DNA of 64,000 nt from Bacillus sp. X1(2014) (GTDB taxonomy: Bacteria > Bacillota > Bacilli > Bacillales_B > DSM-18226). The stretch is taken from assembly GCF_007678255.1 (NCBI RefSeq), contig NZ_VEED01000005.1, positions 1 through 64,000 on the forward strand, given 5' to 3'. Positions 371 to 25,044 of the stretch are shown in pieces (position 1 is the first letter of the stretch; each line of letters begins with the position of its first letter). The notes beneath the pieces are model-generated. The model saw only the letters and a program-made list of their open reading frames with translations, was not told the DNA's origin and ran no database searches. The position numbers were made by a program, and so were the translations under genes.

Positions 371-386
371 TTAATTTTACTAGTTA

Positions 387-460: not shown

Positions 461-471
461 AATTTTAAAAT

Positions 472-545: not shown

Positions 546-549
546 AATT

Positions 550-623
<74 letters not shown>

Positions 624-637
624 CTATATTTGTTTAT

Positions 638-8099: not shown

Positions 8100-8389
8100 G
8101 CAGTTAAGGTGCAAAAAAATAAGGCTAGTGCCAAAAGATTTGGCATATTGTTTCCAAAAAAGGTTAGCAAAATAGCGTTTTTAATTTTGGTACAGAAATT
8201 GCAAGTTTATAAGTTGAAAATAGTGATAAGCAAATTCGTACATTTTTTAGGGGATGAAAGGAGTGAATGCGGAACAAGAAAAAATAACAGAGGAAGCAAC
8301 TTTTCTAGAAGGATTTTAACAAGTAAGAGAGAATAATCAATCTATTGTGTATAGGGCTAAAAAAATAGTCTAAAGCTCATTCTTAACGG
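8100..8389. other. Intergenic stretch with a possible decayed small reading frame
   Basis: From ATG 8254 one frame runs 39 sense codons to TAA 8371 but is broken by an in-frame TAA at 8317. Its start overlaps AGGGG and its codons look gene-like (rich in E, Q and K). It may be a decayed small gene or chance. Nothing else is recognised. Confidence 0.25.
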
Positions 8390-8403
8390 TGAAAGCGCTT
8401 TAA
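8390..8403. promoter_or_regulatory. cre-like CcpA site
   Basis: TGAAAGCGCTTTAA matches the catabolite-responsive element consensus TGAAANCGNTNNCA at all but one of the fixed positions. It lies 27 bp upstream of the -35 of the following promoter. Confidence 0.5.
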
Positions 8404-8430: not shown

Positions 8431-8459
8431 TTGACATTGTTTATTCTGACCCGTATACT
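8431..8459 (+). promoter_or_regulatory. Sigma-A promoter of the DUF3870 gene
   Basis: A perfect TTGACA (8431-8436) and TATACT (8454-8459) with 17-bp spacing. It may also serve the catabolic genes beyond the hairpin at 8885-8970. Confidence 0.85.
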
Positions 8460-8505
8460 CGTGTTAGAAACATGTTCAGTGGGTTTTTGAAAGGTGGATA
8501 AGGGC

Positions 8506-8835
8506 ATGCAAACACTGGAAACAGTGATTGTTACAGGTTATGCAAAAGCTCCACAGGGAACTTCCATGTATGAAATGTATAAGCATGCGGGAATTGTCCT
8601 TGAAGTAGATCTGAAAGATCATAAGATTATCGGAGCTGAATTCACATTCGTAACTGAACTAACAAAAAATTATTTTCAAAAACTGCTGATAGGCTACTGT
8701 CTAGAAGACGGTGTTGAGCAGTTGATTAAACGAATTCAAAGTTTTTATTTTGCTCCATCCCAGCAAGCGATCATTGTGGCTCTTCAAGCTGCAGTTCAAC
8801 GTTACTGGGATAATGTGAAGCAAATTAATACATAA
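8506..8835 (+). CDS. DUF3870 domain protein
   Basis: This 109-residue cytoplasmic protein matches the DUF3870 pattern: an early VTGYAK strand, a GIVLEVD strand, and a helical C-terminal half. The family has no established biochemical role and is often found beside CoA-transferase or amino-acid catabolic genes, as here. ATG 8506 was preferred over GTG 8494 because AAAGGTGG sits eight bases before it. It is transcribed from a strong sigma-A promoter with an upstream cre-like site. It is separated from the CoA-transferase genes by a long hairpin. Confidence 0.75.
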   Translation: MQTLETVIVTGYAKAPQGTSMYEMYKHAGIVLEVDLKDHKIIGAEFTFVTELTKNYFQKLLIGYCLEDGVEQLIKRIQSFYFAPSQQAIIVALQAAVQRYWDNVKQINT

Positions 8836-8884
8836 CGTTTGGTTATAATAAAGTGGGAGGATGACCTCTTCCCATGGTCTTATT

Positions 8885-8970
8885 AAAACCGGGCAAACAT
8901 GAACTCTTTGTAAGGAATGTTCTTTAGAACGACATTCTTTATAGAGATTTATGTTTTGCTCGGTTTTTTA
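8885..8970 (+). terminator. Long imperfect hairpin and T tract between DUF3870 and CoA-transferase genes
   Basis: AAAACCGGGCAAACAT (8885-8900) pairs with ATGTTTTGCTCGGTTTT (8951-8967). The inner parts CTCTTTGTAAGGAATGT and ACATTCTTTATAGAG also pair, giving a stem of over 30 bp with small bulges, then T residues. It can terminate or attenuate transcription from 8459 into the catabolic operon. Confidence 0.7.
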
Positions 8971-9025
8971 TTTTACCGAACTGTTAACATCCACAAAAGT
9001 CGATGGAGAGGCAGGGATTAAAAAC

Positions 9026-9688
9026 ATGAGCAAGCTGATTACATGCGAAGCAGCTGTAAAAATGGTTAAAAGCGGCTCACGAATTATGGTTGGTGGATTT
9101 GGACTTGTCGGAAGTCCGCTTAGTTTAATAGCCGCTTTGGCTCAGTCGGAATTGAAAGACTTAGAGATTATTAGTAATAACCTTGGTGAACCAGGTAGAG
9201 GTCTTGGAGTGTTAGTACGGCAAAAACAAGTAAAAAAAGCGATAGGATCTTATTTTACATCCAACCCGGAGGTGGTTAGATCCTATCAGGAAAAGGAAAT
9301 GGAAGTGGAGCTTCTCCCTCAAGGGACGATGTCTGAAGCTATTCGAGCGGGGGGCGCAGGACTAGGCGGGTTTTATACGCCGGTCAGCGTAGGAACAAAA
9401 ATCGCTGAAAACAAAGAGGAGCGTATCCTTAACGGTAAAAAATATGTGTTCCAAGAGCCTCTCAAAGCCCACTTTGCTTTCATTAAAGCGAAAAAAGCGG
9501 ATCAATTAGGAAATCTCATCTACAACAAATCAGCAAGGAACTTCAATCCGATGATGGCAACAGCTGCGGATGTGGTTATTGCAGAGGTGGATGAGATTGT
9601 GGAGGCAGGGCAAATTTCTCCTGAAGAAATTGTGACCCCTCATTTATACGTTGATTTTATCGTAGTGAAGGGCGGGGAACTAGCTTGA
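9026..9688 (+). CDS. 3-oxoacid CoA-transferase subunit A
   Basis: This 220-residue subunit A belongs to a type I CoA-transferase that moves CoA between short acyl or 3-oxoacyl groups. It carries the glycine-rich SGSRIMVGGFGLVGSP segment near residues 17-32 and the GRGLG and GGFYTP motifs typical of the alpha subunit (AtoD/ScoA/YodS). ATG 9026 was chosen because GGAGAGG/AGGG lies upstream and the protein then has the family length; an upstream extension lacks a good site. Its stop overlaps the start of subunit B. In the proposed lysine route it would activate the 3-oxo-6-aminohexanoate (or its acetyl form) as the CoA ester. Confidence 0.88.
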   Translation: MSKLITCEAAVKMVKSGSRIMVGGFGLVGSPLSLIAALAQSELKDLEIISNNLGEPGRGLGVLVRQKQVKKAIGSYFTSNPEVVRSYQEKEMEVELLPQGTMSEAIRAGGAGLGGFYTPVSVGTKIAENKEERILNGKKYVFQEPLKAHFAFIKAKKADQLGNLIYNKSARNFNPMMATAADVVIAEVDEIVEAGQISPEEIVTPHLYVDFIVVKGGELA

Positions 9689-10347
9689 ACGTGAAACAAT
9701 ACATTGCTGCAAGAGCGGCAAAGGAATTGAAGGATGGCGATATCGTCAATTTAGGCATAGGAATTCCAACGCTGGTGGCTGATTACATTCCATCAGATGT
9801 TCAAGTTTTTTTACACTCGGAAAACGGCATCCTTGGAGTAGGTCCTACCCCTGATCCAGAACATATTGACCAAAATCTTGTCAATGCGGGGAAACTGCCT
9901 GTCACAGTATTGGAAGGGTCATCCTTTTTTGACAGCGCTTCCTCTTTTGCGATGATTCGCGGTGGACATGTAAGTGTTTCAATACTTGGTGTGCTGCAAA
10001 TCGATGCAATTGGGCGGATCGCCAACTGGGCCGTGCCAGGAAAAAGTGTTCTTGGTGTAGGCGGGGCGATGGATTTATTGGAAGGCTCCAAAAAGGTAAT
10101 CGTAACAACGATGCATACATCTAACCAGGGAGAGTCAAAAATCGTCAAGGAATTAACCTATCCGATCACATCGGAACGAATAGTGGATTTAATTATTACC
10201 GATTTAGCGGTTTTCGCTGTAAAGGAAGATGGACTCCATCTTATTGAGCTGTCACCTGGAGTTTCTCTTGAGGAAGTTCAACAGAAAACGGACGCACCTT
10301 TTCAAATTGCTGAATCTTTCAATAAAGGCAAAGAGGTGACCGCATAG
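9685..10347 (+). CDS. 3-oxoacid CoA-transferase subunit B
   Basis: This 220-residue beta subunit has the catalytic glutamate in the SENGILG motif near residue 46, plus the LGIGIPT nucleotide-loop motif near 24-30 and an IRGGHVSVSILG strand. It forms the active enzyme with the product of the upstream gene. The TTG start overlaps the TGA stop of subunit A (TTGA), a clear coupling; GTG 9691 is a less likely alternative. The B. subtilis counterparts are YodR/YodS, which also sit beside kamA. The exact acyl substrate is inferred from context. Confidence 0.88.
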   Translation: MNVKQYIAARAAKELKDGDIVNLGIGIPTLVADYIPSDVQVFLHSENGILGVGPTPDPEHIDQNLVNAGKLPVTVLEGSSFFDSASSFAMIRGGHVSVSILGVLQIDAIGRIANWAVPGKSVLGVGGAMDLLEGSKKVIVTTMHTSNQGESKIVKELTYPITSERIVDLIITDLAVFAVKEDGLHLIELSPGVSLEEVQQKTDAPFQIAESFNKGKEVTA

Positions 10348-11537
10348 TGGTTGTAATCGTAAATGCATTTCGGACTGCTATCGGAAGCTTCGGCGGATCA
10401 TTGGCAGATACGCTTCCAGAGGAGCTTGTCTCTCTCATCATGAAAAATAATCTTTCTGCTTCCGGTTATGGCGCCAATATTGTCGATGAGGTCATTGTCG
10501 GCCAAACAAAGCAGAGTGCGCATGCACCGAATATTGCAAGAGTCTCAGCATTACAGGCCCATTTTCCAGAATCGATTCCTGCTTATACCGTTCATCGTCA
10601 ATGCGGTTCAGGTATGCAGGCAGTCATTAACGGGGCGATGTCGATTATGACAGGTCAGGCGGACGTCGTTTTAGCAGGAGGTGTCGAAAGCATGTCACAA
10701 GCTCCTCATTATATGATCGGTACTCGATTCGGCCAGAAGATGGGAGATATAACGCTGTATGATTCAAATACGGAGAGTCAGCCAAAATCGCAGCCGGAGG
10801 AGATATATGGACGTTTCACGATGGGGCAAACAGCTGAGTGGCTGGCTGAAAAATATAAGATTAGCCGCCGTGAACAAGATGAATTTGCCTTCATGAGTCA
10901 GCAGAAAACGAAACGTGCAATTGAAATGGGCCATTTTGAAGAAGAAATCATTCCTGTTCCTGTAAAGGAAGGAAAAAAGGGAATCAGACATTTTGCAGTC
11001 GATGAGTACCCAAGATTGACGGACATTGAAAAGTTAGGAACACTGCGTCCTGTGTTTCAAAAGGATGGTACGGTAACAGCCGGAAACTCCTCCGGCAGAA
11101 ATGATGGGGCCTCGATGCTGCTGTTGATGTCAGAAGAAAAAGCCAAACAACTTGGAGTGGTCCCATTGGCAAGGATTCGTTCCTTTGCTGCAGCGGGTGT
11201 ATCACCAAAAGAAATGGGAATCGGTCCGGTTCCAGCATCCCAAATTGCGTTGAAAAAAGCAGGTCTTCGTTTGGAAGATATCGATTTAATTGAATTAAAT
11301 GAAGCATTCGCTGCTCAAAGTCTTGCTTGTTTAAAAGAATGGGGCATAAAAGGAGACAACGTAAATGTCAACGGAGGGGCGATTGCCTTAGGCCATCCAC
11401 TTGGGTCCTCCGGTGCAAGAATCGTTACTACATTATGTCATGAGCTTGAAAAACAAAAACGGCAATATGGCCTTGCGACAATTTGTGTGGCGGGGGGATT
11501 AGGATTGGCAATGGTGGTGGAAAGATGGATGGAATAA
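10347..11537 (+). CDS. Thiolase (acetyl-CoA C-acyltransferase)
   Basis: This 396-residue thiolase II-family enzyme cleaves a 3-oxoacyl-CoA with CoA to give acetyl-CoA and a shortened acyl-CoA, or runs in reverse. The nucleophile Cys86 lies in HRQCGSG, the second active-site set is [11 protein letters not shown] (His about 351), and the acid/base Cys380 is in ICVAGGLG. The start is GTG 10347, overlapping the TAG stop of CoA-transferase B by one base. Thiolase is not part of the B. subtilis yod group, so its presence completes a cleavage step here: 3-oxo-6-(acet)amidohexanoyl-CoA would give acetyl-CoA and a 4-(acet)amidobutyryl-CoA. Confidence 0.92.
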
Positions 11538-12910
11538 AAAATGACTACGTGTTTCATCGGGATTTAAAAAAGGAGTATCCGATTATTACCCACGGTGAAG
11601 GTGTCTATCTCATCGATGAGAACGGAAAAAAATATTTGGATGCTTGCTCTGGTGCGGTTGCAGCTAACTTAGGCCATGGGATTACTTCTATAGGGGAGGC
11701 CATGGCAGAACAAGCAAAAAAAGCAGCTTTCGTCCATACCATGCGCTTCGAGACGAAGGCATTGCATGAACTGGCCGAAACCATCGGAAAAATGGCCCCA
11801 GATTATTTAAATAAAGTGTATTTTACAACCGGAGGCTCAGAAGCAAATGAAAGTGCTTTGAAGCTGGCGCGGCAATATCATCGTGATGCCGGCAGAACCC
11901 AAAAACATATGGTAATTGGGCGATGGCAATCGTATCACGGTAACACCATTGGCTCTTTATCAGCCGGAGGAGACGTTAAAAGAAGACATGCATACACTCC
12001 TAATCTTTTAAACTATGCCCATGTCTATTCTCCGTACTGCCACCGATGTCCATACGATCGTCAAAAAGAGGATTGTCTCTCCAAACAAAACTGGACATGT
12101 GTGACGGATATTGAAAGAACCATTTTAGAGCTTGGTCCTGAGAACGTGTCGGCATTTATCGCCGAACCGATTGTTGGAAGCCAGCAAGGTGCTGTTCCAC
12201 CGCCGCCGGGGTATTTTGAGAAAGTTCGAGAGCTGTGTGATCGTTACGAAATCATCTTAATCATCGATGAAGTGATGACTGGATTCGGCCGTACGGGTAC
12301 CAACTTCGCGACAGAACAGATTGGAATCATGCCTGATATCATCACATTCGGAAAAGGGGTATCAGCGGGATATGCTCCGCTTGCTGGAATGATTGTTCAT
12401 GATCGGTTAATTGATGGGCTCATACAAAACAGCGACGGGAAATTCATTCATGGTTACACATATAGCGGGCATCCTGTGGCTGTTGCTGCCGGTCTTGCTG
12501 CATTAGACGTATATGAGCGAGATATGGTGCTGGAAAACGTCAAAGAACAAAGTTACTACCTAGTCAAACGTCTTTTGGAAATGAAGCAAAAACATGCTTA
12601 TATATCTGATGTTCGTGGAAGAGGGCTTTTAATCGGTATGGAGCTTGTGAAGGATTGTAGGCAGGATCTACTGTTCGATCCATCTGAAAAAGCTGCTGAA
12701 AGATTGAATGGAATTGCGATGGAACTCGGTGCGGTTTTTTATCCCGGTTCCGGTTCAATTGACGGCACAAAGGGGGAGCACCTCATCATCAGCCCTCCTT
12801 TAAATGTTACGAGAACAGAAATTGAAGAGATTGTAAGAATTTTAGATGAATCATTCACGATATTCACAGCTCAATTAAGAAAGGATGAGATGTATGAAAT
12901 TACAAAATAA
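11525..12910 (+). CDS. Class III PLP aminotransferase, YodT-like
   Basis: This 461-residue omega-aminotransferase binds pyridoxal phosphate through Lys277 (FGKGVSAG), with the cofactor Asp in IIDEVMTGFGRTG near 248. A four-cysteine stretch (172, 175, 184, 192) follows a YSPYC segment; I do not know whether it binds metal. It resembles B. subtilis YodT, the aminotransferase beside kamA. ATG 11525, inside the end of the thiolase gene, fits GGTGG upstream and the family length. In this cluster its best job is removing the 3-amino group of beta-lysine or N6-acetyl-beta-lysine to give the 3-oxo acid. Confidence 0.85.
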   Translation: MDGIKNDYVFHRDLKKEYPIITHGEGVYLIDENGKKYLDACSGAVAANLGHGITSIGEAMAEQAKKAAFVHTMRFETKALHELAETIGKMAPDYLNKVYFTTGGSEANESALKLARQYHRDAGRTQKHMVIGRWQSYHGNTIGSLSAGGDVKRRHAYTPNLLNYAHVYSPYCHRCPYDRQKEDCLSKQNWTCVTDIERTILELGPENVSAFIAEPIVGSQQGAVPPPPGYFEKVRELCDRYEIILIIDEVMTGFGRTGTNFATEQIGIMPDIITFGKGVSAGYAPLAGMIVHDRLIDGLIQNSDGKFIHGYTYSGHPVAVAAGLAALDVYERDMVLENVKEQSYYLVKRLLEMKQKHAYISDVRGRGLLIGMELVKDCRQDLLFDPSEKAAERLNGIAMELGAVFYPGSGSIDGTKGEHLIISPPLNVTRTEIEEIVRILDESFTIFTAQLRKDEMYEITK

Positions 12911-14189
12911 AACAGAAGAAATTCAAATAAAAGCACAAAAACATTTATCACCGGTTATGACCAGGGTAACGGAGCTTGTCATTGAAAAAGCACATGGCGC
13001 CAAATTTTGGACGACTGACGGAAAGGAATATATCGATTTCGTTTCAGGAGTAGCTGTCAACGCAGTCGGGCATACGAACGGAAAAATGGTGGAAGCCATT
13101 AAAAAGCAAGCTGAAGCCTTGATTCATCTAGGTTTGAACTATGGTTATTATGAAACGGCAGCGAATTTGGCGGAAAAGCTTGCTCATATCACACCAGGAA
13201 ACCTAGACACGGTCTTTTTCTCCAATTCGGGAGCTGAGGCCATTGACGGTGCTCTTAAACTAGCAAAGGCGGCCACAGGCAGACCCGCCATCATTGCTTT
13301 TGAAGGATCGTTTCATGGCCGTACATTAGGAGCAACTGCTATTACGGCATCAAGCTCTAAATACCGCCGTTATTATGAACCGATTTTAGGCGAGGTGTAC
13401 CACGTTCCCTATCCGTATCCCAGCCAGCTGAAAAACATTAGAGAAGAAGAAGCGGAAGAGTACTGCTTGAATCAGCTTCAAAAATTGTTCGATTTACGCG
13501 TGGATCCTTCACGTGTAGCGGCTATCATCATTGAACCGGTAATGGGTGAAGGCGGCTATTATCCAGCACCGCCAAGCTTTTTGAGGGAGTTAAGAAAGAT
13601 TACAGAGGAACACGGAATTTTGCTTATCTTTGACGAAGTACAAACAGGATTTGGCCGCACAGGTAAAATGTTCGCGGCAGAGCATGCGAATGTGACGCCT
13701 GATATTTTAGTACTGGCAAAAGCCCTTTCCGGCGGTATGCCTCTTGGTGCCATTGTAGCAAGTCGTGAGCTTCATGAAAAATGGCCGACGGCCGGTCATG
13801 GTTCGACATTTGGAGGAAATCCAATTTCTTGTGCTGCGGCATTGGCAAACATTGAGGTTATTGAAGAAGAGAAGTTGGTAGAACGCAGTGCAAAACTTGG
13901 TGCCGAGATTGTCGGCCGACTTCATAACTCGGTCGGACATTTACCAGGCATAGTTGAAGTCCGAGGAGTCGGCATGATGATCGGTATTGAATTCGATTCG
14001 CAGTCTGCTGCAATATTTGTACCGAAAATCAAATCAAAAGCACTGGAAAATGGCTTGCTCATTATGAACTGCGGTGTAAGCGGACAAACCATCCGATTGA
14101 TGCTGCCTCTTAATATTCAAGAAGATGTGCTTGATATAGGATTATCGATTTTAGAAGATGTGATAACCGAAACCATTTCAGGAAATTAA
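12894..14189 (+). CDS. Class III aminotransferase, 4-aminobutyrate type
   Basis: This 431-residue PLP aminotransferase has Lys276 in LAKALSGG, the GSFHGRT loop near 141-147 and the FDEVQTGFGRTG motif near 246-257. These are typical of 4-aminobutyrate (GABA) and related omega-amino-acid aminotransferases (GabT). ATG 12894 is preferred over ATG 12885 because AAAGG abuts 12885; the gene overlaps its upstream neighbour. The next gene is an aldehyde dehydrogenase, the usual partner that oxidises succinate semialdehyde. Together they would drain GABA into the TCA cycle. Another omega-amine substrate, such as 5-aminovalerate, remains possible. Confidence 0.85.
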   Translation: MKLQNKTEEIQIKAQKHLSPVMTRVTELVIEKAHGAKFWTTDGKEYIDFVSGVAVNAVGHTNGKMVEAIKKQAEALIHLGLNYGYYETAANLAEKLAHITPGNLDTVFFSNSGAEAIDGALKLAKAATGRPAIIAFEGSFHGRTLGATAITASSSKYRRYYEPILGEVYHVPYPYPSQLKNIREEEAEEYCLNQLQKLFDLRVDPSRVAAIIIEPVMGEGGYYPAPPSFLRELRKITEEHGILLIFDEVQTGFGRTGKMFAAEHANVTPDILVLAKALSGGMPLGAIVASRELHEKWPTAGHGSTFGGNPISCAAALANIEVIEEEKLVERSAKLGAEIVGRLHNSVGHLPGIVEVRGVGMMIGIEFDSQSAAIFVPKIKSKALENGLLIMNCGVSGQTIRLMLPLNIQEDVLDIGLSILEDVITETISGN

Positions 14190-14231
14190 TTTTCGTTTCC
14201 TCGAAATACCACCAAAAAGGAGGTCAAGTTT

Positions 14232-15692
14232 ATGTCTAGTCAAATCAAAACAGAGATTCTTCAAGGAGATCTTTATATAAATGGAAAATGGGTTAGTGCC
14301 CCCGATCAGTCCTACTTTGAAAGCATAAATCCGGCAACGGGGGAACTAGTCGGGATATGTGCGGCCGCCACAACAGAGCAAGTGGATGAGGCTGTCACAA
14401 AAGCGAATGAAGCGTATTTAAAATGGAAGAACACCCCTATTCCAGAACGAGCGGCTTATTTAACAAAAGCAGCCCATTTGTTTGAAATACGTAAACAGGA
14501 ACTTGCTAGAGTGATGACCATGGAGATGGGCAAAGTATTCCCTGAGTCTTTGGGCGAAGTTGGAGTGGTCATCGCGACTGCTCAATATATGGCAGGCGAA
14601 GGACGACGCCTTTTTGGAGAAACGGTCCCTGCGGGCTTCCCGGACCGGAATGTAAGAATGGTTCGTGAACCTCTTGGAGTCGCGGCGTGCATTACCCCCT
14701 GGAACTTCCCAGTTGCACTTGCTTCCTACAAAATCTTTTCAGCTCTGATTGCTGGTAATACCGTTGTATGGAAGCCAGCTTCAGAGGTTGCCCTATCGGC
14801 AAAGATTTTTGTGGAAGTGTTAGATGAAGCAGGATTGCCAGCAGGGGTAGTGAACTTAATTACCGGTTCAGGAAGAACAGTCGGTCAAACACTCGCAGAG
14901 CATTCGGATGTTAAAATCATTTCGTTTACGGGCTCAACAGAAGTCGGACAAAAGCTGGCTGAAATGAGCAGTAAAACGTTAAAACGTATTTCATTGGAAT
15001 TGGGCGGGAAAAATGCCGTGATCGTCTTGAAGGATGCGGACTTGGACAAGGCGGCAGACGGAATCGTAAAGTCAGCGTTTACAACAACTGGTCAACGCTG
15101 TACAGCGGCAAGTCGAGTAATCGTCGAGCATCCAGTAAAGGAACTGCTCGTACAAAAAGTAGTAGATTTAACAAAGTCTATGAAAATAGGAAATGGACTT
15201 GAAGAAGGGAAACAAGTGGGCCCTCTCGTAAATGAAGACCAACTTCATACAGTCGAAAAATATGTAAAAACAGCGATTGAAGAAGGTGGGAAAATTGTGT
15301 CGGGTGGTCAGCGTGTCAAAGAATTGGGCGGCTATTATTATGAACCGACCATCATCGAGAAGGTAAAACCAAATGATACCATTGCACAGGAAGAAATATT
15401 TGGTCCGGTTCTTGCCATCATTGAAGTAGATTCATATGAAGAAGCCATGGAGGTAAATAACGGGACGATTTATGGGCTGTCGACTTCCATTTATACAGAG
15501 AGCCTTCATTATGCGAACCGTGCTGCAAAGGAAGCAGTAAGCGGACTTGTCTACATTAATAATGGAACGTCTAATGCCGAGATGGGAGTGGCGTTTGGGG
15601 GGATGAAGATGTCCGGAAACGGTCACCGTGAAGTTTCCCATCATGCATTTGATGTCATGACTGAATGGAAGTCCATTTATACGAACTATTAA
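14232..15692 (+). CDS. NAD(P)-dependent aldehyde dehydrogenase, succinate-semialdehyde type
   Basis: This 486-residue enzyme of the aldehyde dehydrogenase superfamily has Asn158 (TPWNFP), general base Glu256 (LELGGKN) and nucleophile Cys290 (GQRCTAASR), and the usual GFTGST-like FTGSTEVG cofactor loop. Coming after a GABA-type aminotransferase, it most likely oxidises succinate semialdehyde to succinate. Similarity to the 2,5-dioxovalerate dehydrogenase branch leaves some doubt over substrate. A strong AAAAAGGAGG lies before the ATG. It is part of the run of co-directional genes ending with yokU. Confidence 0.88.
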   Translation: MSSQIKTEILQGDLYINGKWVSAPDQSYFESINPATGELVGICAAATTEQVDEAVTKANEAYLKWKNTPIPERAAYLTKAAHLFEIRKQELARVMTMEMGKVFPESLGEVGVVIATAQYMAGEGRRLFGETVPAGFPDRNVRMVREPLGVAACITPWNFPVALASYKIFSALIAGNTVVWKPASEVALSAKIFVEVLDEAGLPAGVVNLITGSGRTVGQTLAEHSDVKIISFTGSTEVGQKLAEMSSKTLKRISLELGGKNAVIVLKDADLDKAADGIVKSAFTTTGQRCTAASRVIVEHPVKELLVQKVVDLTKSMKIGNGLEEGKQVGPLVNEDQLHTVEKYVKTAIEEGGKIVSGGQRVKELGGYYYEPTIIEKVKPNDTIAQEEIFGPVLAIIEVDSYEEAMEVNNGTIYGLSTSIYTESLHYANRAAKEAVSGLVYINNGTSNAEMGVAFGGMKMSGNGHREVSHHAFDVMTEWKSIYTNY

Positions 15693-15726
15693 TGAACAGA
15701 CCATTTCTTTTATAAGGTGGGGAAAT

Positions 15727-17247
15727 ATGAGAAAACATCGTATTGGTATTGCATTCTTTTACCATGAATCCCACAGTTTCAGCCCGATGAAAACTGAAAT
15801 CGAACAGTTTCGAAATGAAGGTTACTTTATCGGCGATGAAATTTATGATGCCTATACAGGAACGAAAACAGAAGTGGGTGGGTTTCTGGATGTCTTGAAA
15901 CAGGACGAGGATGTAGAAATCGTACCGCTGCTTTGTGCAGCAGCGGTCCCATCCGGCGTAGTATCAACAGAAGCGTACTCCATCATTGAAAAACAAATGC
16001 TGGAGTCCATCCAGCAGGCGGGAAGGCTGGACGGATTATTGCTTGCCCTCCATGGAGCGATGGTCGTCGAGCACCTCCATGATCCGGAAGAGCATTTACT
16101 GGGGAAAATTCGTGGGCTTATCGGTTCGAATGTTCCGATCGCAACGACCCTGGACATGCACGCCAATTTAAGTGAAAAAATGATTGATTATACACCACTT
16201 CATTTTGGATTTAAAACATATCCGCATATTGATATGTACGAACAAGGTGTTCATGCGGCAATCGCTTTGTTAAATCAATTAAAGGAAGGTGTGACTTACT
16301 ACGCTTCTTTTGAAAAGTTGCCGATGATGCCTCCCTCTATCAATATGAGAACGGCAGAAGGGCCGATGCACAAAATGATAGAGTGGGCGAAACAAGCCGA
16401 AGAGGAAGCAGGTATTTATCATGTGTCCGTATTTGGTGGCTTTCCTTACTCGGATATTCCCATGGTCGGTGCAAGTGTACTTGTTGTTTCGCTCGATCCG
16501 CAAAAAGGAAAAGAGACTGCCCAAAAGATAGCTTCATTGTTCTGGAGCGTAAGAGAAGAATTTATCATGGATTTGCCCGGTGTAAAAGAAGGGCTCGCTT
16601 TGGCCATGTCGATTGAAGACGACAAACCGGTCGTGCTGGCGGACATCTCGGATAATCCTCTAAGCTGCGGAAGCGGGGATACAACAGAGCTGCTTCGGGA
16701 GATGGTGAAGATGAACATTCCCGACACGCTGTTTGGAGGACTTTACGATCCAGAATCTATTGAGGCTTGCCGCAAGAAGGGAGCCGGAAATAAGGTAATG
16801 CTGTCCCTTGGAGGGAAAGTATCGCCTGAATTTGGGGAGTCCGTACAGGTCGAAGCAACGGTAGTGGCTTTATCAGACGGTGTATTTCACAATTCTGGAC
16901 CGTTCAACCAGCATTTAAGAGTCGATTTAAAGGGGGCGGCACACATTCGCGTTGGCAAGATGGATATCCTCCTCATAGGAAGACCGATGTCAGCGAATGA
17001 TCCGGAAATGTTTCGTCATATTGGTCTTGAGCCGCAGGCAAAAAGAATTCTTGGGCTAAAGGCTAAAAATCATTTCCGGGCAGCGTTTGAGCCGATTGTT
17101 GGCCGTATCATTTATGTGGATGCACCGGGTGTTGCATCCAACCGTTTAACAACTTTTACGTATCGTTATATTCCTAAGCCAATTTGGCCGCTCGATGATA
17201 TCCAATATGAGGGAGAACGGAGGGGGACAGAAAAATGGACACATTAA
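15727..17247 (+). CDS. M81 family metallohydrolase (MlrC-like)
   Basis: This 506-residue protein matches the MlrC/M81 family, metal-dependent hydrolases known from microcystin breakdown and from gene clusters handling amides and peptides. Candidate metal ligands are the early YHESHSF group (His13, Glu14, His16), the LALHGAM histidine, the TTLDMHANL Asp/His pair and the YPHIDMYE histidine. The second domain contains a CGSGDTTELL motif. It occupies the place where B. subtilis has the deacetylase yodQ, between the aminotransferase/CoA-transferase genes and the acetyltransferase. I infer that it may remove the acetyl group late in the route. RBS AAGGTGGGG precedes the ATG. Confidence 0.82.
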   Translation: MRKHRIGIAFFYHESHSFSPMKTEIEQFRNEGYFIGDEIYDAYTGTKTEVGGFLDVLKQDEDVEIVPLLCAAAVPSGVVSTEAYSIIEKQMLESIQQAGRLDGLLLALHGAMVVEHLHDPEEHLLGKIRGLIGSNVPIATTLDMHANLSEKMIDYTPLHFGFKTYPHIDMYEQGVHAAIALLNQLKEGVTYYASFEKLPMMPPSINMRTAEGPMHKMIEWAKQAEEEAGIYHVSVFGGFPYSDIPMVGASVLVVSLDPQKGKETAQKIASLFWSVREEFIMDLPGVKEGLALAMSIEDDKPVVLADISDNPLSCGSGDTTELLREMVKMNIPDTLFGGLYDPESIEACRKKGAGNKVMLSLGGKVSPEFGESVQVEATVVALSDGVFHNSGPFNQHLRVDLKGAAHIRVGKMDILLIGRPMSANDPEMFRHIGLEPQAKRILGLKAKNHFRAAFEPIVGRIIYVDAPGVASNRLTTFTYRYIPKPIWPLDDIQYEGERRGTEKWTH

Positions 17248-17714
17248 ACAAAACCTATTATGTCGAAGTACCAGTTTCATTGAATCCAGAACAGCTAAAT
17301 ATGATGATGGAGCTTGAGCGAGATGCGTTTCCAGGATTAGGAGCAGTAGATGAACAAGCCCTTGTCCCGCTGACACGCTACGGGAAACTCATTCAATACC
17401 GGCAGCAAAACGATCCCAGGCCGATTGCGATTTGCGAAGTGATGAGAGCTTACAATGATATTCATAAAGCCTACATTTTTGGATTTTATGTCCGCTCTGA
17501 CCAGCAGGGGAAAGGAATCGGAAAATTATTCTTGCAGGATATTTATCCGATTTTAAAACAAGATGGATTTCATAAGGTTTGCTTAACGGTCAACACTCAA
17601 AACAAGGCAGCCGTCAAGTTATATGAAAAATTAGGGTTTGTCATTAAAGAGACGAGATTCGATGAATTTGGTGAAGGGGAAAATCGTTATTATATGGAAT
17701 ACGCCATTTCTTAA
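17235..17714 (+). CDS. GNAT N-acetyltransferase
   Basis: This 159-residue protein has the GNAT acetyl-CoA-binding motif A SDQQGKGIGKLF near residues 87-98, and the family's late VNTQNKAAVKLYEKLGF segment. It overlaps the M81 gene by 13 bases with GGAGGGGGA upstream, so the two are coupled. In B. subtilis the kamA neighbour yodP is an acetyltransferase thought to act on beta-lysine (AblB activity), but that protein is much longer than this single-domain enzyme. Position suggests N6-acetylation of beta-lysine or an intermediate. Self-protection or another amine substrate is not excluded. Confidence 0.75.
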   Translation: MDTLNKTYYVEVPVSLNPEQLNMMMELERDAFPGLGAVDEQALVPLTRYGKLIQYRQQNDPRPIAICEVMRAYNDIHKAYIFGFYVRSDQQGKGIGKLFLQDIYPILKQDGFHKVCLTVNTQNKAAVKLYEKLGFVIKETRFDEFGEGENRYYMEYAIS

Positions 17715-17774
17715 TAAACAGAGTATTCATTCAAGGGGTCATAAAAAATCAACCAATTTAGGGGGAGTTTAATC

Positions 17775-19184
17775 ATGAGAAACACTTTATTCAAACCGAA
17801 AAGACATTGGAAAGAAATCGAGCTTTGGAAGGATGTAACGGATGAGCAATGGAACGATTGGGTTTGGCAGCTGACGAATACGATCAAAAATTTAGAAGAC
17901 TTAAAGAAAGTAGTTAACTTAACACCAGAAGAAGAGGAAGGGGTTTTAATCTCAACAAAAACAATCCCATTAAACATCACGCCATATTATGCATCGCTAA
18001 TGGATCCTGATGATTCAAGATGTCCGGTTCGAATGCAGTCTGTTCCGATTTCTGCGGAATTGCATAAAACAAGATATGACTTAGAAGATCCCCTTCACGA
18101 AGATGAAGATTCACCAGTACCTGGGTTAACCCATCGTTATCCGGATCGCGTGTTGTTCTTAGTAACGAACCAGTGCTCCATGTACTGCCGTTACTGTACA
18201 AGAAGACGCTTCTCCGGACAAATCGGAATGGGCGTACCAAAGAAACAGTTAGACACAGCCATTAATTATATCGCATCGAACCCACAGATCCGAGATGTGT
18301 TAATTTCCGGAGGAGACGGGCTCCTTATTAATGACAATATTTTAGAATATATTTTAAAGAATTTACGTGAGATTCCGCATGTAGAAATTATTCGTATCGG
18401 TACAAGAGCACCTGTCGTGTTCCCGCAGCGTATTACTGAAAATCTTTGTAATATCTTGAAAAAGTATCATCCAGTTTGGTTGAATACACATTTCAATACA
18501 TCTATTGAAATTACGGAAGAATCGAAGCGTGCATGTGAAATGCTTGCAAATGTTGGTGTACCTGTTGGTAACCAGGCGGTTATTTTAGCAGGCATTAACG
18601 ACAGTGTACCGATCATGAAACAGCTTATGCATGACCTTGTTAAAATTCGCGTTCGTCCATATTATATTTACCAATGCGATTTATCAGAAGGAATCGGCCA
18701 TTTCCGTGCACCAATCAGCAAAGGATTGGAAATTATGGAAGGACTTCGCGGCCATACATCGGGTTATGCTGTTCCGACATTTATTGTTGATGCCCCGGGT
18801 GGAGGAGGCAAAATTCCATTGCAGCCGAACTATATCATTTCTCAAAGTGCTAATAAAGTCGTATTACGAAACTTTGAAGGTGTCATTACATCTTATCCAG
18901 AACCAACAAATTATCAGTCAGGCAGTGCAGAGGATTACTACAAAAAGGTATATCCTGAAGTGTTCGAAAAGTTTGAAAGTAATGGCGTCCTATCGATTAT
19001 TGATGATACGAAGTTTAATCTTACACCTGAAGGGTTAAAACGGTTAGATCGCCGCAAGACGTATAACGAAAGCACTGAGCATAGTTCATTAAAAGATAAA
19101 CGTGAAAAACGTGATGAGTTAAAAGAGAAAAAATTCCAATCACAAATGAAGAAATATGAAACAGTGGGAGCAAAGGAGGAATAA
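17775..19184 (+). CDS. kamA: L-lysine 2,3-aminomutase
   Basis: This 469-residue radical SAM and PLP enzyme moves the 2-amino group of L-lysine to position 3, giving L-beta-lysine. The 4Fe-4S cluster ligands are Cys134, Cys138 and Cys141 in the CSMYCRYCTRRR motif. The SGGDGLL segment near 178 fits the SAM site, and PLP would bind the lysine of GGGGKIPL (about 346). The C-terminal tail is long and charged. ATG follows AGGGGGAG. The gene is followed at once by yokU, as in B. subtilis, where the group is expressed during sporulation. It is the entry enzyme for the pathway proposed for this cluster. Confidence 0.95.
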   Translation: MRNTLFKPKRHWKEIELWKDVTDEQWNDWVWQLTNTIKNLEDLKKVVNLTPEEEEGVLISTKTIPLNITPYYASLMDPDDSRCPVRMQSVPISAELHKTRYDLEDPLHEDEDSPVPGLTHRYPDRVLFLVTNQCSMYCRYCTRRRFSGQIGMGVPKKQLDTAINYIASNPQIRDVLISGGDGLLINDNILEYILKNLREIPHVEIIRIGTRAPVVFPQRITENLCNILKKYHPVWLNTHFNTSIEITEESKRACEMLANVGVPVGNQAVILAGINDSVPIMKQLMHDLVKIRVRPYYIYQCDLSEGIGHFRAPISKGLEIMEGLRGHTSGYAVPTFIVDAPGGGGKIPLQPNYIISQSANKVVLRNFEGVITSYPEPTNYQSGSAEDYYKKVYPEVFEKFESNGVLSIIDDTKFNLTPEGLKRLDRRKTYNESTEHSSLKDKREKRDELKEKKFQSQMKKYETVGAKEE

Positions 19185-19186
19185 TT

Positions 19187-19465
19187 TTGATTTGTCAATG
19201 GTGCGAATCTGACACAGCACGTGAATCGAGCAACAAAGTGTATTGGGAACTTCCAGATGGAACAAATGCGATTGAAATTCAGGACACACCAGCCATTCAT
19301 TGCTTGGATTGCGGTATGACCTATCAAACCGATCAAACGGTGAAAGAAATTGAGGATCATCTATTTTTAATTGATTGCTCAAAGCTTGAAAAAAGTATGA
19401 CGTATGAAACACTTATGACCGCTCCACGCTTATTGAAGCGAAACTACTTTGATTTTTCGAAATAA
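19187..19465 (+). CDS. yokU: YokU family zinc-finger-like protein
   Basis: This 92-residue protein carries two CxxC pairs (Cys3/Cys6 and Cys39/Cys42) that probably hold one zinc ion, in a layout shared with small MqsA/YgiT-type N-terminal domains. It begins at TTG 19187, two bases after the kamA stop, with AAAGGAGG upstream. YokU is found linked to kamA across Bacillus but has no established function. It might regulate or assist KamA. A hairpin follows its stop. Confidence 0.88.
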   Translation: MICQWCESDTARESSNKVYWELPDGTNAIEIQDTPAIHCLDCGMTYQTDQTVKEIEDHLFLIDCSKLEKSMTYETLMTAPRLLKRNYFDFSK

Positions 19466-20434: not shown

Positions 20435-20445
20435 GGAGAGATAGG

Positions 20446-21102: not shown

Positions 21103-21113
21103 GAGGAAATGAA

Positions 21114-21878: not shown

Positions 21879-21921
21879 AAATTGAGGTCTCCAAAAAATA
21901 TCTCAAAGGAAGTAAACCAAT

Positions 21922-23193
21922 ATGAAGGAAGAAATGGATCGTCTTAGTTTATTAAATCTTCACATAGACAATGAGACTAGTAAATTAGCTATTCAAGCTA
22001 AGGACACATATGATCAATTAAAAGAATTTCTTTCTGAACATCCCCATTTAAAACAGAAAAATAGGCATATCACCATTATTGGTGGTGGAATTGTTGGTCT
22101 AATGTCCGCCTTTTTTTTGCAAAAAAGTGGATTTACGATCACTATTTTAGAAAAAAAGTCATTTGGTGCAGCAGCTTCTGGAAGGAATGGAGGCGGAGTG
22201 CTGTCTTTAGGCAGAGAGTTATCCGAAATACCTTTCGCCAGATTGGCCACTGAGATTTGGAACTCGCTTCAACAAAAAAAGATTGACACGAAATATGTTT
22301 CATCTGGTCATGTAATGGTCGCGAGAAATGGAGTAGAACAAGAAAAACTCCTTGCGGCACATGAAATATACACTACAGCGGGGTTAAAAGTTAAGGTTCT
22401 TTCTCCAGATGAGCTGAAATGCATGGTTCCGGATCTAACATCCGAAACAAAGATGGGTTTATTTAGCAAATCTGATGGGCAAAGCTATCCTTTTACAACG
22501 ATGACTAGTTTACTAAAGTATCTAAAAGAACATGGAGCTACTGTAATCAATCATTGTGAGGTCCTTGACTTTCAGACTAGTAATCGAACCATAGAGTATG
22601 CCATTACGGAAAAAGGAAAGTTTCAAGCGGATGCCTTTCTGCTTTGTTGTGGGCCTTGGACAACGGAAGTATGTAAAAAGTTAAACGAACAAGTCGTCGT
22701 CATTCCAAGACGTTCTCAAATTCTTGTCTCCGAGATTGTTAATAAAAGGAGGATTCACCCATTTGTTACAGGGAATTCTTTATATTTACGGCAAACTCAC
22801 GCTGGCAATATTTTATTTGGCGGGGGAGGCTCTTGGGAAACGAATGGGTTCGATGTTTCGAATACGAACTATGCATTGGAGTTCCTTTCAAGTAGATTAC
22901 TAGAACTTTTCCCTGCCTACAGTCATAAACAATTGATTCGGGCGTTTGCTGGGACAGTCGAACTGACAGAAGATCATCTTCCGTATTTTGGGAAATTAGA
23001 TACATTCGACAATGCCTTTATCTCTGGAGGTTATAACGGTCATGGATATGGTATGTCTGCCGTCATGGGCAACCTCATGGCAAATAGCTTAACGTATCAA
23101 CTTAATGGAAGAGTAAACCCAATTCACGACCCTATTCTTTCTCGTTTTTCAGTGGACCGGTCGAAAAAGAAGGCAGGGAAACTTAATGTGTAA
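21922..23193 (+). CDS. FAD-dependent D-amino-acid/opine dehydrogenase subunit (DAO fold)
   Basis: This 423-residue flavoprotein has an FAD dinucleotide-binding motif IIGGGIVGLMSA at about 52-63, unusually preceded by some 45 residues. The rest follows the DAO/glycine oxidase fold, ending in GGYNGHGYGMSAVMG. With the three genes after it, it forms the set known from hydrogen cyanide synthase HcnABC, opine oxidase and D-hydroxyproline dehydrogenase (LhpBEF-type). In those enzymes this beta subunit dehydrogenates the amino compound to an imine. There is no signal peptide. The true substrate is open; a D-amino acid or secondary amine fits. Confidence 0.8.
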   Translation: MKEEMDRLSLLNLHIDNETSKLAIQAKDTYDQLKEFLSEHPHLKQKNRHITIIGGGIVGLMSAFFLQKSGFTITILEKKSFGAAASGRNGGGVLSLGRELSEIPFARLATEIWNSLQQKKIDTKYVSSGHVMVARNGVEQEKLLAAHEIYTTAGLKVKVLSPDELKCMVPDLTSETKMGLFSKSDGQSYPFTTMTSLLKYLKEHGATVINHCEVLDFQTSNRTIEYAITEKGKFQADAFLLCCGPWTTEVCKKLNEQVVVIPRRSQILVSEIVNKRRIHPFVTGNSLYLRQTHAGNILFGGGGSWETNGFDVSNTNYALEFLSSRLLELFPAYSHKQLIRAFAGTVELTEDHLPYFGKLDTFDNAFISGGYNGHGYGMSAVMGNLMANSLTYQLNGRVNPIHDPILSRFSVDRSKKKAGKLNV

Positions 23194-23464
23194 CCATTCT
23201 TTCATCATCTGTCGTTGTGAAGAAGTTTCAATAGAAGATATTCAAGATGCCATCGCTGCCGGAGCCTCAAATAGTCAGGAAATGAAAATGTCCACCCGTG
23301 CGGGGATGGGAATGTGCCAGGGGAGGTTATGCAGACCATTGTTGAAGGCATTGCTTCCAGACAATCATAAGGAAAGTGTTCATAGCCCAAGTCAACTAAC
23401 CTTTCATCAGCCAGTACGTCCTGTTTCCTTAGCCAAAATAGTGCAAAAGGAGAATTCGATATGA
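23186..23464 (+). CDS. BFD-like [2Fe-2S] protein
   Basis: This 92-residue protein has the four-cysteine pattern of bacterioferritin-associated-ferredoxin domains: Cys-x-Cys in ICRCEEV and Cys-x4-Cys in MCQGRLCRP. In most HcnB/SoxA-type subunits this domain is fused to the C terminus of the NAD/FAD protein. Here it is a free-standing gene, placed upstream. It overlaps the previous gene by eight bases and the next by four (ATGA), so translation is coupled. It probably carries electrons between the two flavoproteins. Confidence 0.8.
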   Translation: MCNHSFIICRCEEVSIEDIQDAIAAGASNSQEMKMSTRAGMGMCQGRLCRPLLKALLPDNHKESVHSPSQLTFHQPVRPVSLAKIVQKENSI

Positions 23465-23763
23465 GAATTCAGCATCCTATCCTTCCCTCACGCTCGACAA
23501 AAACCATCTCGTTTACTTTTAATCATAAAATGTTTCAAGCAAGAGAGGGAGATACAATAGCTATTGCTCTATGGGCCAATGGAGTTAAGACGTTAAGAAA
23601 TAGTGAAAAGAATCATGAACCAAGAGGCATGTATTGTGGAATCGGCCAGTGTTATGAATGTAGAATCTATCATCCGAAAATAGGGTTACTCAAAGCCTGT
23701 ACCACGCGCGTTCAAGAAGGGGCTCACTATTTTTCTAAAGAACCGTTTAATGAAATGGACTAA
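23461..23763 (+). CDS. [2Fe-2S] ferredoxin-like subunit (HcnA type)
   Basis: This 100-residue protein has the plant-ferredoxin-like ligand set: Cys in GMYCGIGQCYEC and a later Cys in LKACTTRV, with the AREGDTIAIALWANG helix used by HcnA/SoxA N-terminal domains. It would act as the small gamma subunit passing electrons from the flavins. It starts with an ATGA overlap on the previous gene and is followed after 18 bases by the large NAD(P)/FAD subunit. Confidence 0.85.
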   Translation: MRIQHPILPSRSTKTISFTFNHKMFQAREGDTIAIALWANGVKTLRNSEKNHEPRGMYCGIGQCYECRIYHPKIGLLKACTTRVQEGAHYFSKEPFNEMD

Positions 23764-23781
23764 GGAAGGAAGGGGGGAGAA

Positions 23782-25044
23782 ATGAAAGTAGATGTGGTAG
23801 TTGTAGGTGGAGGTCCTGCTGGTTTATCTGCAGCCATTGAAATTGGAACAAGAGGCGGTAAGGTCGTGGTTCTCGATGATCATCCAACACCAGGAGGAAA
23901 ATTACTAGGACAGCTGCATCAAGAAGGGAATCATTCTAAATGGTGGAAAGGATTTGAATTGGCGCAAGAGTTAAAACAAAAGGCCCTAGCTGCCAACGTT
24001 CAAATTCTATCCGAGAGACAGGTTTGGGGATTGGAACCAGGATGGAAGGTGCACATTTCTGATCTGGTTCAGAATGAATCAGGAATGGAAATTCAAGCAG
24101 ATTGTGTATTACTAGCTACGGGTGCTGTTGAAAAGCCAATACCTATCCCTGGTTGGACATTGCCAGGTGTGCTATCCATTGGTGCAGCCCAAGTTATGAC
24201 AAATGTATATCAGGTATTGCCTGGAAAAAAAGTAATCGTTGTGGGAATTGATATTTTGTCACTATCGATTGCACGTTCTATGAAGCTAGCAGGCGCGGAT
24301 GTAGAAGGAATTTACATGCTTCCACAAAGCCCATTCTCCAATTTTGCTTCTCCGCTTTTACATCTAGAAACTTTAAACGAGATGACCGATTTTGCTCCTT
24401 CTAAAATGATTAGACTTACAGGCAAGTTATTAAAATCTAAAACAGGGCGAAAGCTTGCTGCCCAATTTTATCCGCCTATGGGAATAAAGATGTGGGGGAT
24501 TCCGATTCACTTAAGACACACAATTCTTTCGATTAATGGGAACCATGAGGTCGATAGTGCAACCATTACTAAGGTTGACGTTAATGGTAACCCAATTGGA
24601 CAACAAAAGGATATCCAAGCAGATACAATCTGTATTTCTGGAGGACTTAGCCCTTTATATGAGCTGGCTGCTACGGCAGGGTGTAAGTTTGTTACTTTGG
24701 AAGGATTATCAGGTACGGTGCCATTACATAATAAAGAGCTCGAAACAACCGTTCCTAATCTCTTCGTTGCTGGCAATATTACTGGAATAGAAGGGGCAAA
24801 AGTAGCCATGGCACAGGGAACGTTAGCAGGTAAATCTATTTGTAATAAATTGAGGATTGGCAATCTTAAAATGGCTGATATGGAAGAAGCGCTTTCTTTT
24901 GTGGAACGTAGTAGAAAATTATCAGATATTCAGTTCCATCCCAAAGTTTCAGAAGCAAGAGAGCACCTGAATGATCTATGGAAAACATTAATTAAAGACG
25001 TGAGTCGGGAGGACAAGAATGGGAGCAATCAAAAGCTATACTAA
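23782..25044 (+). CDS. NAD(P)/FAD-dependent oxidoreductase subunit (HcnB/SoxA type)
   Basis: This 420-residue flavoprotein has an N-terminal VVVGGGPAGLSAA FAD loop (residues 6-18) and an LLATGAVEKPIPIPGW motif near 110 typical of HcnB, SoxA and opine-oxidase alpha subunits. A second dinucleotide-type segment (KVIVVGIDILSLSIA) follows near 150, and an LFVAGNITGIEGA C-terminal FAD motif. It lacks the usual C-terminal four-cysteine domain, which is supplied by the gene at 23186. GGAGGGGG lies before the ATG. It would complete a heterotetrameric dehydrogenase with the preceding three products. Confidence 0.85.
   Translation: MKVDVVVVGGGPAGLSAAIEIGTRGGKVVVLDDHPTPGGKLLGQLHQEGNHSKWWKGFELAQELKQKALAANVQILSERQVWGLEPGWKVHISDLVQNESGMEIQADCVLLATGAVEKPIPIPGWTLPGVLSIGAAQVMTNVYQVLPGKKVIVVGIDILSLSIARSMKLAGADVEGIYMLPQSPFSNFASPLLHLETLNEMTDFAPSKMIRLTGKLLKSKTGRKLAAQFYPPMGIKMWGIPIHLRHTILSINGNHEVDSATITKVDVNGNPIGQQKDIQADTICISGGLSPLYELAATAGCKFVTLEGLSGTVPLHNKELETTVPNLFVAGNITGIEGAKVAMAQGTLAGKSICNKLRIGNLKMADMEEALSFVERSRKLSDIQFHPKVSEAREHLNDLWKTLIKDVSREDKNGSNQKLY

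What the first reader, a model, noticed from the sequence alone, without database searches (positions are those of the whole stretch)
9026..19465. A near-complete beta-lysine route from lysine to succinate
Seen: CoA-transferase A/B, thiolase, YodT-like aminotransferase, GABA-type aminotransferase, semialdehyde dehydrogenase, M81 hydrolase, GNAT and KamA/YokU lie on one strand with short gaps or overlaps. Known: KamA makes beta-lysine; an acetyl-beta-lysine route to 4-acetamidobutyrate and acetyl-CoA has been described for some aerobic bacteria, and B. subtilis has a partial yod-kamA set. Inferred: KamA makes beta-lysine, GNAT protects N6, YodT gives the 3-oxo acid, CoA-transferase and thiolase give acetyl-CoA and 4-(acet)amidobutyryl-CoA, then GABA aminotransferase and the dehydrogenase give succinate. 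All steps are accounted for without a gap.
Basis: partly seen in the sequence, partly recalled or inferred. Interest (0 to 1): 0.75.

Follow-up and report, generated by a model that had tools for sequence, protein, structure and literature searches.

The report
Second, rewired beta-lysine degradation operon
A Bacillus relative carries a compact gene set that most likely breaks lysine down through beta-lysine to acetyl-CoA and succinate, with two enzymes unrelated to the usual ones proposed for the protecting and unprotecting steps.

Summary
In detail: a same-strand gene run at 9026-19465 (gaps -26 to +60 nt), headed by a DUF3870 gene at 8494. The order recurs in Neobacillus and relatives; M81 and GNAT are adjacent in 35 of 35 loci found with M81.

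The lysine-to-succinate reading is partly supported. This is not the canonical kam/yod operon: KamA is a true AblA, but the GNAT is not AblB, an M81 hydrolase stands where an M20 deacylase is usual, and aminotransferase and CoA-transferase are distant paralogues. Among 249 genomes of the order, 6 of 129 with KamA lack AblB; all six lack the M20 (YodQ) and have this GNAT and M81. The 4 other M81/GNAT genomes have AblB and two KamA copies.

Nothing is shown biochemically. GabT and dehydrogenase labels miss curated cut-offs; an unacetylated 3-oxoadipate route is not excluded; G025 has the cluster without true KamA, and G047 has M81 without the GNAT nearby. New variant of a known kind.

The parts
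8187..8203 (+). sigma-54-like -24/-12 site (1 mismatch), about 320 nt before DUF3870
   Evidence: 14 such matches in the window, 11.5 expected by chance; a like site upstream of DUF3870 in 6 of 34 relatives only, so weak
8390..8403 (+). catabolite-response-element-like palindrome (consensus recalled)
   Evidence: 1 mismatch; 4 matches in the window against 1.45 by chance, not significant alone; similar box at the same place in many relatives
8431..8459 (+). sigma-A promoter TTGACA-17-TATACT (11 of 12)
   Evidence: best promoter-like site of the region, though such sites overall are no more frequent than in shuffles (36 against 41.8); a sigma-A-type match upstream of DUF3870 in 26 of 34 relatives with DUF3870 (36 loci given; L026 had only 188 nt upstream). 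In L001 and L014 the first regex match lies elsewhere, but the alignment shows the same site; L027's match differs in sequence
8494..8835 (+). DUF3870 protein, first gene of the unit
   Evidence: PF12986; in 32 of 35 loci
9026..9688 (+). CoA-transferase subunit A
   Evidence: PF01144, TIGR02429
9685..10347 (+). CoA-transferase subunit B
   Evidence: PF01144, TIGR02428
10347..11537 (+). thiolase (3-oxoacyl-CoA cleavage inferred)
   Evidence: PF00108/PF02803, TIGR01930
11525..12910 (+). YodT-like class III aminotransferase (N6-acetyl-beta-lysine transaminase inferred)
   Evidence: in one clade with canonical YodT, 100/100 support
12885..14189 (+). GABA-type class III aminotransferase (below TIGR00700 cut-off)
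14232..15692 (+). aldehyde dehydrogenase (succinate semialdehyde inferred; below TIGR01780 cut-off)
15727..17247 (+). M81/MlrC-type zinc hydrolase, proposed deacetylase of 4-acetamidobutyrate(-CoA)
   Evidence: PF07364/PF07171; zinc-ligand equivalents E14, D143, H145, H167 invariant in 20 of 20 rows; model matches 3iuu and 7ylq
17235..17714 (+). GNAT acetyltransferase of its own family (not AblB), proposed beta-lysine N6-acetyltransferase
   Evidence: PF00583; no AblB model hit, no BLAST likeness to the AblB of L052; in exactly the same 10 of 249 genomes as M81
17775..19184 (+). KamA, lysine 2,3-aminomutase
   Evidence: TIGR03820 631.4 bits, cut-off 525.4; cluster-adjacent KamA proteins form their own clade
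19187..19465 (+). YokU zinc-finger protein
   Evidence: PF14122, TIGR03829
19622..21878 (+). polar amino acid ABC transporter (binding protein, permease, ATPase), accessory
   Evidence: in 4 of 35 loci
21922..25044 (+). FAD oxidoreductase set (DAO-type protein, second FAD protein, and small cysteine-rich ORFs between them judged iron-sulphur by eye), accessory
   Evidence: DAO and FAD2 each in 7 of 35 loci
25019..26542 (+). LysP-like amino acid permease
   Evidence: PRK10836 741.4 bits, cut-off 735 (the LysP name is recalled); detected in 26 of 35 loci, mostly right after YokU

Best explanation
A dedicated lysine catabolic operon of Neobacillus-type bacteria with a vegetative-type promoter, parallel to and able to stand in for the canonical kam/yod operon. 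Lysine enters by the LysP-like permease [inferred]; KamA makes beta-lysine [family assignment solid]; the GNAT acetylates N6 [inferred], which would keep the later 3-oxo-6-amino and 4-aminobutyryl-CoA intermediates from cyclising; the YodT-like enzyme gives 3-oxo-6-acetamidohexanoate [inferred]; CtfAB loads CoA, the thiolase releases acetyl-CoA and 4-acetamidobutyryl-CoA [inferred]; the M81 zinc hydrolase removes the acetyl group, from the acid or the CoA ester, giving GABA [inferred, the new element]; the GABA-type aminotransferase and the aldehyde dehydrogenase give succinate [inferred]. GNAT and M81 are a non-homologous replacement of the AblB/M20 (YodQ) pair.
For: Order scan, 249 genomes drawn evenly: KamA in 129, AblB in 133, YodQ in 126, M81 subfamily in 10, GNAT in the same 10. 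Of 129 KamA genomes 123 have AblB (121 of these also YodQ); the 6 without AblB all lack YodQ and all have M81 and GNAT; the other 4 M81/GNAT genomes have AblB and two KamA copies; M81 in 0 of 120 genomes without KamA (Fisher p 3.7e-8, not corrected for kinship). M81 and GNAT adjacent (-10 to +54 nt between alignment ends) in 35 of 35 loci. In L092 the set stands in one run with KamA-YokU in another order and without thiolase; in G243 and G281 it shrinks to YodT-GabT-ALDH-M81-GNAT with KamA 11-15 kb before YodT. Cluster-adjacent KamA forms its own clade, 96/97. Window YodT groups with canonical YodT (100/100) among 25 class III aminotransferases of two genomes. One of four canonical operons read (L052, Sporosarcina globispora) carries, right after its M20 gene, an aminotransferase that passes TIGR00700 GABA transaminase (599 of 507 bits), then an aldehyde dehydrogenase: this suggests, independently, that the acetylated route ends in GABA. 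M81 keeps all zinc ligands.
Against: No activity is known for these subfamilies. GabT, ALDH and YodT miss the curated cut-offs of the named functions; the ALDH beside the true GABA transaminase in L052 also misses SSADH (377 of 646), and three of the four canonical operons have no such pair. CtfAB is nearer to the genomes' other CoA-transferases (49%) than to the canonical pair (45-46%). G025 has the cluster but no true KamA and no AblB, and its cluster (L032) lacks GabT; 5 of 35 loci have no KamA nearby. G047 has the M81 (61%) with CtfAB, thiolase and YodT but no GNAT or close GabT in 19 kb, so M81 is not always tied to GNAT. Three AblB-less genomes (G011, G014, G022) keep a YodQ-like M20 (52-71%), so M81 need not be the only deacetylase. 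G243 and G281 clusters lack CtfAB and thiolase in the stretches seen (G281 has a weak 26-27% CoA-transferase-like ORF 4 kb off). B. thuringiensis HD73, which has a kam locus, did not use lysine as nitrogen source (PMC4428206). The 10 genomes are not independent samples.
Confidence: 0.5

Rival explanations
1. Unacetylated route: GABA-type aminotransferase and aldehyde dehydrogenase oxidise C6 of beta-lysine to 3-aminoadipate, the YodT-like enzyme gives 3-oxoadipate, and CtfAB plus thiolase give succinyl-CoA and acetyl-CoA as in aromatic degradation. GNAT and M81 do something else.
For: Uses KamA, both aminotransferases, ALDH, CtfAB and thiolase without any unproven activity class; CtfAB fits the PcaIJ/Sco subfamilies, and the ALDH scores highest with 2-oxoglutarate-semialdehyde and 2,5-dioxovalerate dehydrogenases (both below cut-off) rather than SSADH; AblB-less genomes would need no acetylation.
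Against: Leaves unexplained why GNAT and M81 are among the most constant genes (35 of 35 loci; identical 10 of 249 genomes); YodT groups with canonical YodT.
Confidence: 0.17
2. The core set serves a broader class of diamino acids or N-substituted amino acids, taken up by the ABC transporter and opened by the DAO/FAD complex; KamA/LysP is only one feeder acquired in Neobacillus-type operons.
For: L032 and L086 carry the core with ABC and DAO/FAD2 genes and no KamA in the stretch seen; G025 has no true KamA at all; the window carries both feeders.
Against: 10 of 10 M81/GNAT genomes in the order scan have KamA; of the genomes whose cluster has no KamA beside it, G020-G023, G036 and G047 have one elsewhere and only G025 has none.
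Confidence: 0.18
3. M81 is not the deacetylase: GNAT replaces AblB, but another hydrolase deacetylates and M81 opens a side product such as a lactam.
For: Three AblB-less genomes keep a YodQ-like M20; G047 has M81 in the cluster without GNAT; the described M81 activity is on peptides (PMC9982164).
Against: 7 of 10 AblB-less KamA genomes with the cluster have no YodQ: no match at E 1e-50 in six, 37% identity in G024; in the order scan M81 and GNAT share the same ten genomes.
Confidence: 0.12
4. KamA and GNAT make N6-acetyl-beta-lysine as a compatible solute rather than for catabolism.
For: Acetyl-beta-lysine is a compatible solute in methanogens (titles and abstract starts).
Against: Thiolase, CoA-transferase, two aminotransferases and a dehydrogenase in the same operon point to breakdown.
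Confidence: 0.03

Closest known systems
Canonical kam/yod operon (YodT, CoA-transferase A and B, M20, AblB, sigma-54 activator, KamA, YokU) as read in L052-L055; yod names recalled. The B. thuringiensis HD73 kam locus (kamA, six upstream genes, KamR activator) is known to me from passages of PMC4428206, which do not list the other genes
   Same: KamA, YokU, a CoA-transferase pair and a YodT-family aminotransferase, one direction
   Different: No AblB, no M20, no adjacent sigma-54 activator; GNAT and M81 instead; built-in thiolase, GABA-type aminotransferase, ALDH, LysP-like permease; sigma-A-type promoter; YodT 38-42% and CtfA/CtfB 41-53% identical to canonical
Beta-lysine utilisation in a Pseudomonas (Barker laboratory, 1970s-1981; recalled, no paper of it found)
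   Same: Proposed intermediates: N6-acetyl-beta-lysine, 3-oxo-6-acetamidohexanoate, 4-acetamidobutyryl-CoA, GABA
   Different: That was enzymology without genes as far as I recall; here candidate genes, in Bacillota, starting from lysine via KamA
M81 family: microcystinase MlrC (7ylq) and 3iuu
   Same: Fold (TM 0.83-0.88) and zinc ligands
   Different: 24-26% identity; MlrC's N41 substrate residue aligns with H16 here; small-molecule gene context
Clostridial lysine fermentation (definition recalled)
   Same: KamA as first step
   Different: No lysine 5,6-aminomutase or cleavage enzyme among the ten cluster proteins scanned

Membership tests
Canonical kam/yod beta-lysine operon | AblA-type KamA | tested here: met
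   TIGR03820 631.4 of 525.4 bits
Canonical kam/yod beta-lysine operon | AblB beta-lysine acetyltransferase | tested here: not met
   No TIGR03827 hit for the cluster GNAT; no BLAST likeness to L052 AblB
Canonical kam/yod beta-lysine operon | M20 deacylase YodQ in the operon | tested here: not met
   None among the 30 window proteins scanned with Pfam, which include the whole cluster; M81 instead
Canonical kam/yod beta-lysine operon | YodT-type aminotransferase | tested here: inconclusive
   PRK06917 459 bits under the 535 cut-off, but in one clade with canonical YodT
Canonical kam/yod beta-lysine operon | KamR-type sigma-54 activator beside KamA and -24/-12 promoter before it | tested here: not met
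   Nearest sigma-54 activator found is at 29983-31356, minus strand; KamA loci outside the cluster show the promoter in 7 of 8 examined, and the window has no such match near 17775
GABA transaminase / SSADH pair | passes TIGR00700 and TIGR01780 cut-offs | tested here: not met
   383 of 507 and 398 of 646 bits
M81 zinc hydrolase | domains and zinc ligands E, D, H, H | tested here: met
   PF07364, PF07171; invariant in 20 rows; ligands from PMC9982164 (passages)
Microcystinase MlrC | passes NF041767 | tested here: not met
   180.8 of 999 bits
Beta-lysine N6-acetyltransferase by function | acetylates beta-lysine at N6 | not testable with these tools
   needs enzyme assay
4-acetamidobutyrate(-CoA) deacetylase by function | releases acetate from 4-acetamidobutyrate or its CoA ester | not testable with these tools
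   needs enzyme assay

The most novel reading that the evidence does not exclude
The M81 family, known by function only from microcystin breakdown as far as I recall, contains a metabolic deacetylase of 4-acetamidobutyrate or 4-acetamidobutyryl-CoA that, with a GNAT of its own small family, replaced the AblB/M20 pair in at least two lineages of Bacillales-type bacteria; these would be genes for beta-lysine pathway enzymes known only biochemically (their 'orphan' status is recalled, not checked).
Probability: 0.38. Interest if true: 0.62.

Novelty: new variant of a known kind. Interest (0 to 1): 0.5.

Why it matters
It would give a nearly self-contained genetic basis for aerobic lysine breakdown through beta-lysine, assign a small-molecule role to an M81 'peptidase' subfamily, and show a paired, non-homologous swap of a protecting and a deprotecting enzyme. 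It makes the fate of beta-lysine in Bacillota, described as undetermined for B. subtilis KamA (PMC6522883, passages read), directly testable with a handful of purified enzymes.

Tried and rejected
Own-genome search: not held, so I cannot say whether the window's own genome also has the canonical operon. Rfam: eight tRNAs only. Structure of the GNAT (mean pLDDT 80.5) matches generic GNATs (RimI, SpeG, PaiA among them) and gives no substrate. Distant M81 proteins in the class scan: 16 of 200 genomes match at E 1e-60, of which 4 (G004, G020, G036, G047) are at 61% identity or more and the rest at 29-38%; none of the 16 distant loci (L067-L082) has the GNAT within about 1.5 kb. One on a Rhizobium plasmid lies beside agmatinase, an FAD oxidoreductase and a polar ABC transporter. 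The CoA-transferase tree favours neither route. Ten literature searches ran: I saw no description of an M81/GNAT/KamA operon in the listings, but the library holds only open-licence papers and listings were partial. Papers PMC6522883, PMC4428206, PMC9982164, PMC2821294 and PMC12628753 were seen as passages only; others as listings; Zhang 2014 (PMC4135644) is not held. The Barker-laboratory pathway, EC orphan status, the cyclisation argument, yod gene names, LysP name and the cre consensus are recalled. Unacetylated 3-oxoadipate route considered and ranked second.
Full report
WHAT IS THERE. The unit begins one gene earlier, with a DUF3870 gene at 8494 behind a near-consensus sigma-A promoter at 8431-8459. 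Of 36 related loci given, DUF3870 was found in 34 and a sigma-A-type match lies upstream in 26 of these; the alignment shows the same site in most Neobacillus-type loci and not in L093-L095 or the Peribacillus ones. A LysP-like permease follows; in the window an ABC transporter and a FAD oxidoreductase set stand between YokU and it, which most relatives lack (the transporter is in 4 of 35 loci).

CONSERVATION. A scan of genome contigs with the M81 protein gave 35 loci from Neobacillus, Robertmurraya, Priestia, Cytobacillus, Peribacillus and others (four of them, L023, L024, L030, L031, from one genome). M81, GNAT and ALDH are detected in 35 of 35, CtfB, thiolase, YodT-like and GabT-like in 34, CtfA in 33, DUF3870 in 32, KamA in 29. 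Of the six without KamA, L020 ends at a contig edge; L025-L028 and L032 lack it nearby.

NOT THE CANONICAL OPERON. Of 25 such genomes, 19 have two KamA matches over the cut-off and 17 have AblB over its cut-off, each within 2 kb of a KamA. In L052-L055 that KamA belongs to a canonical operon: YodT, CoA-transferase A and B, M20 deacylase, AblB, sigma-54 activator, KamA, YokU. Window YodT is 38-42% and the CoA-transferase subunits 41-53% identical to those. KamA proteins split into two clades, 33 and 19 rows of 52 (46 different), 96/97 support, midpoint-rooted. The first holds the cluster-adjacent copies, including L092 and L029, plus L038; the second holds canonical copies and the KamA of genomes where it stands apart from the cluster (G020-G023, G243, G281).

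THE SWAP. In 249 genomes drawn evenly from the order of G004: KamA 129, AblB 133, YodQ 126, M81 subfamily 10, GNAT 10, the same ten. KamA with AblB: 123, of which 121 with YodQ. KamA without AblB: 6 (G020, G021, G023, G243, G281, G311); all six lack YodQ and all six have M81 and GNAT. The other four M81/GNAT genomes have AblB and two KamA copies each. M81 is in 0 of 120 genomes without KamA. Fisher p is 3.7e-8, but the genomes are related; the six fall into at least two groups by gene context. Adding the genomes, 10 AblB-less KamA genomes carry the cluster; six have no YodQ match at E 1e-50, G024 has only 37%, and G011, G014 and G022 keep one at 52, 56 and 71%.

MECHANISM. The simplest reading is that GNAT and M81 stand in for AblB and M20: acetylate N6 of beta-lysine, deacetylate the four-carbon product. 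A hint from elsewhere that the acetylated route ends in GABA: one of the four canonical operons read (L052, S. globispora) has, right after M20, an aminotransferase that passes the GABA transaminase equivalog (599 of 507 bits), and an aldehyde dehydrogenase that does not pass SSADH (377 of 646). Window YodT and canonical YodT form one clade (100/100) among 25 class III aminotransferases of two genomes, and window GabT is apart from them. M81 keeps the zinc ligands named for MlrC (E39, D167, H169, H191 in PMC9982164; the same text once prints H196) as E14, D143, H145, H167, invariant in 20 aligned sequences; the model (mean pLDDT 89.2) fits 3iuu and 7ylq.

AGAINST. The GabT, SSADH and YodT labels miss their curated cut-offs. 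CtfAB does not group with the canonical pair. G025 has the cluster without true KamA or AblB, and its cluster lacks GabT. G047 has M81, CtfAB, thiolase and YodT but no GNAT or close GabT in 19 kb; GNAT elsewhere in that genome was not tested. Clusters in G243 and G281 lack CtfAB and thiolase in the stretches seen. B. thuringiensis HD73, with a kam locus, did not use lysine as nitrogen source (PMC4428206, passages). An unacetylated route through 3-aminoadipate and 3-oxoadipate is chemically possible and would use all genes but GNAT and M81. No biochemical result is available.

RANGE. The GNAT family looks compact: 84 protein clusters at E 1e-15 or better out of 117 candidates; those bearing a species name are Bacillus-like or Paenibacillus, including Priestia megaterium (70% identical), apart from one 97-residue fragment labelled E. 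coli.

VERDICT. Observation confirmed, interpretation partly supported, new variant of a known kind, with a specific and testable role for an M81 protein.

Noticed in passing
window 19622-25044: Polar amino acid ABC transporter plus a DAO/FAD oxidoreductase set inserted between YokU and the LysP-like permease; the same modules sit inside versions of the cluster without KamA beside them (L032, L086), and DAO/FAD2 lie upstream in L025, L027, L028. Possible second feeder for an N-substituted amino acid.
   Followed up: partly
L023, L024, L030, L031: Neobacillus pocheonensis shows four loci with this cluster in one assembly, some with missing or broken genes.
   Followed up: no
window 29983-37157: Divergent PrdR-like sigma-54 activator (below the PrdR cut-off) facing a perfect -24/-12 site (31493-31509) before a Rieske oxygenase, an aldehyde dehydrogenase, a tartrate-dehydrogenase-type gene (TIGR02089 over cut-off) and a sodium:solute symporter: perhaps a quaternary-amine or carnitine-type catabolic set.
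   Followed up: no
window 1-709: Run of eight tRNA genes at the start of the window.
   Followed up: no
window 8836-9025: 190 nt between DUF3870 and CtfA hold a hairpin at 8853-8875; role and conservation unknown.
   Followed up: no
10 of 249 genomes (G289, G300, G304, G328, G345, G355, G368, G379, G393, G405): AblB over its cut-off without a KamA match at E 1e-120; source of their beta-lysine, if any, unclear.
   Followed up: no
L087 (G047): M81 (61%) in a CtfAB-thiolase-YodT-ALDH cluster without the GNAT and without a close GabT.
   Followed up: partly
L143 (Rhizobium leguminosarum plasmid pRL11): A distant M81 (36%) stands with agmatinase, FAD oxidoreductase and a polar amino acid ABC transporter, hinting that M81 proteins act on small amides more widely.
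   Followed up: partly
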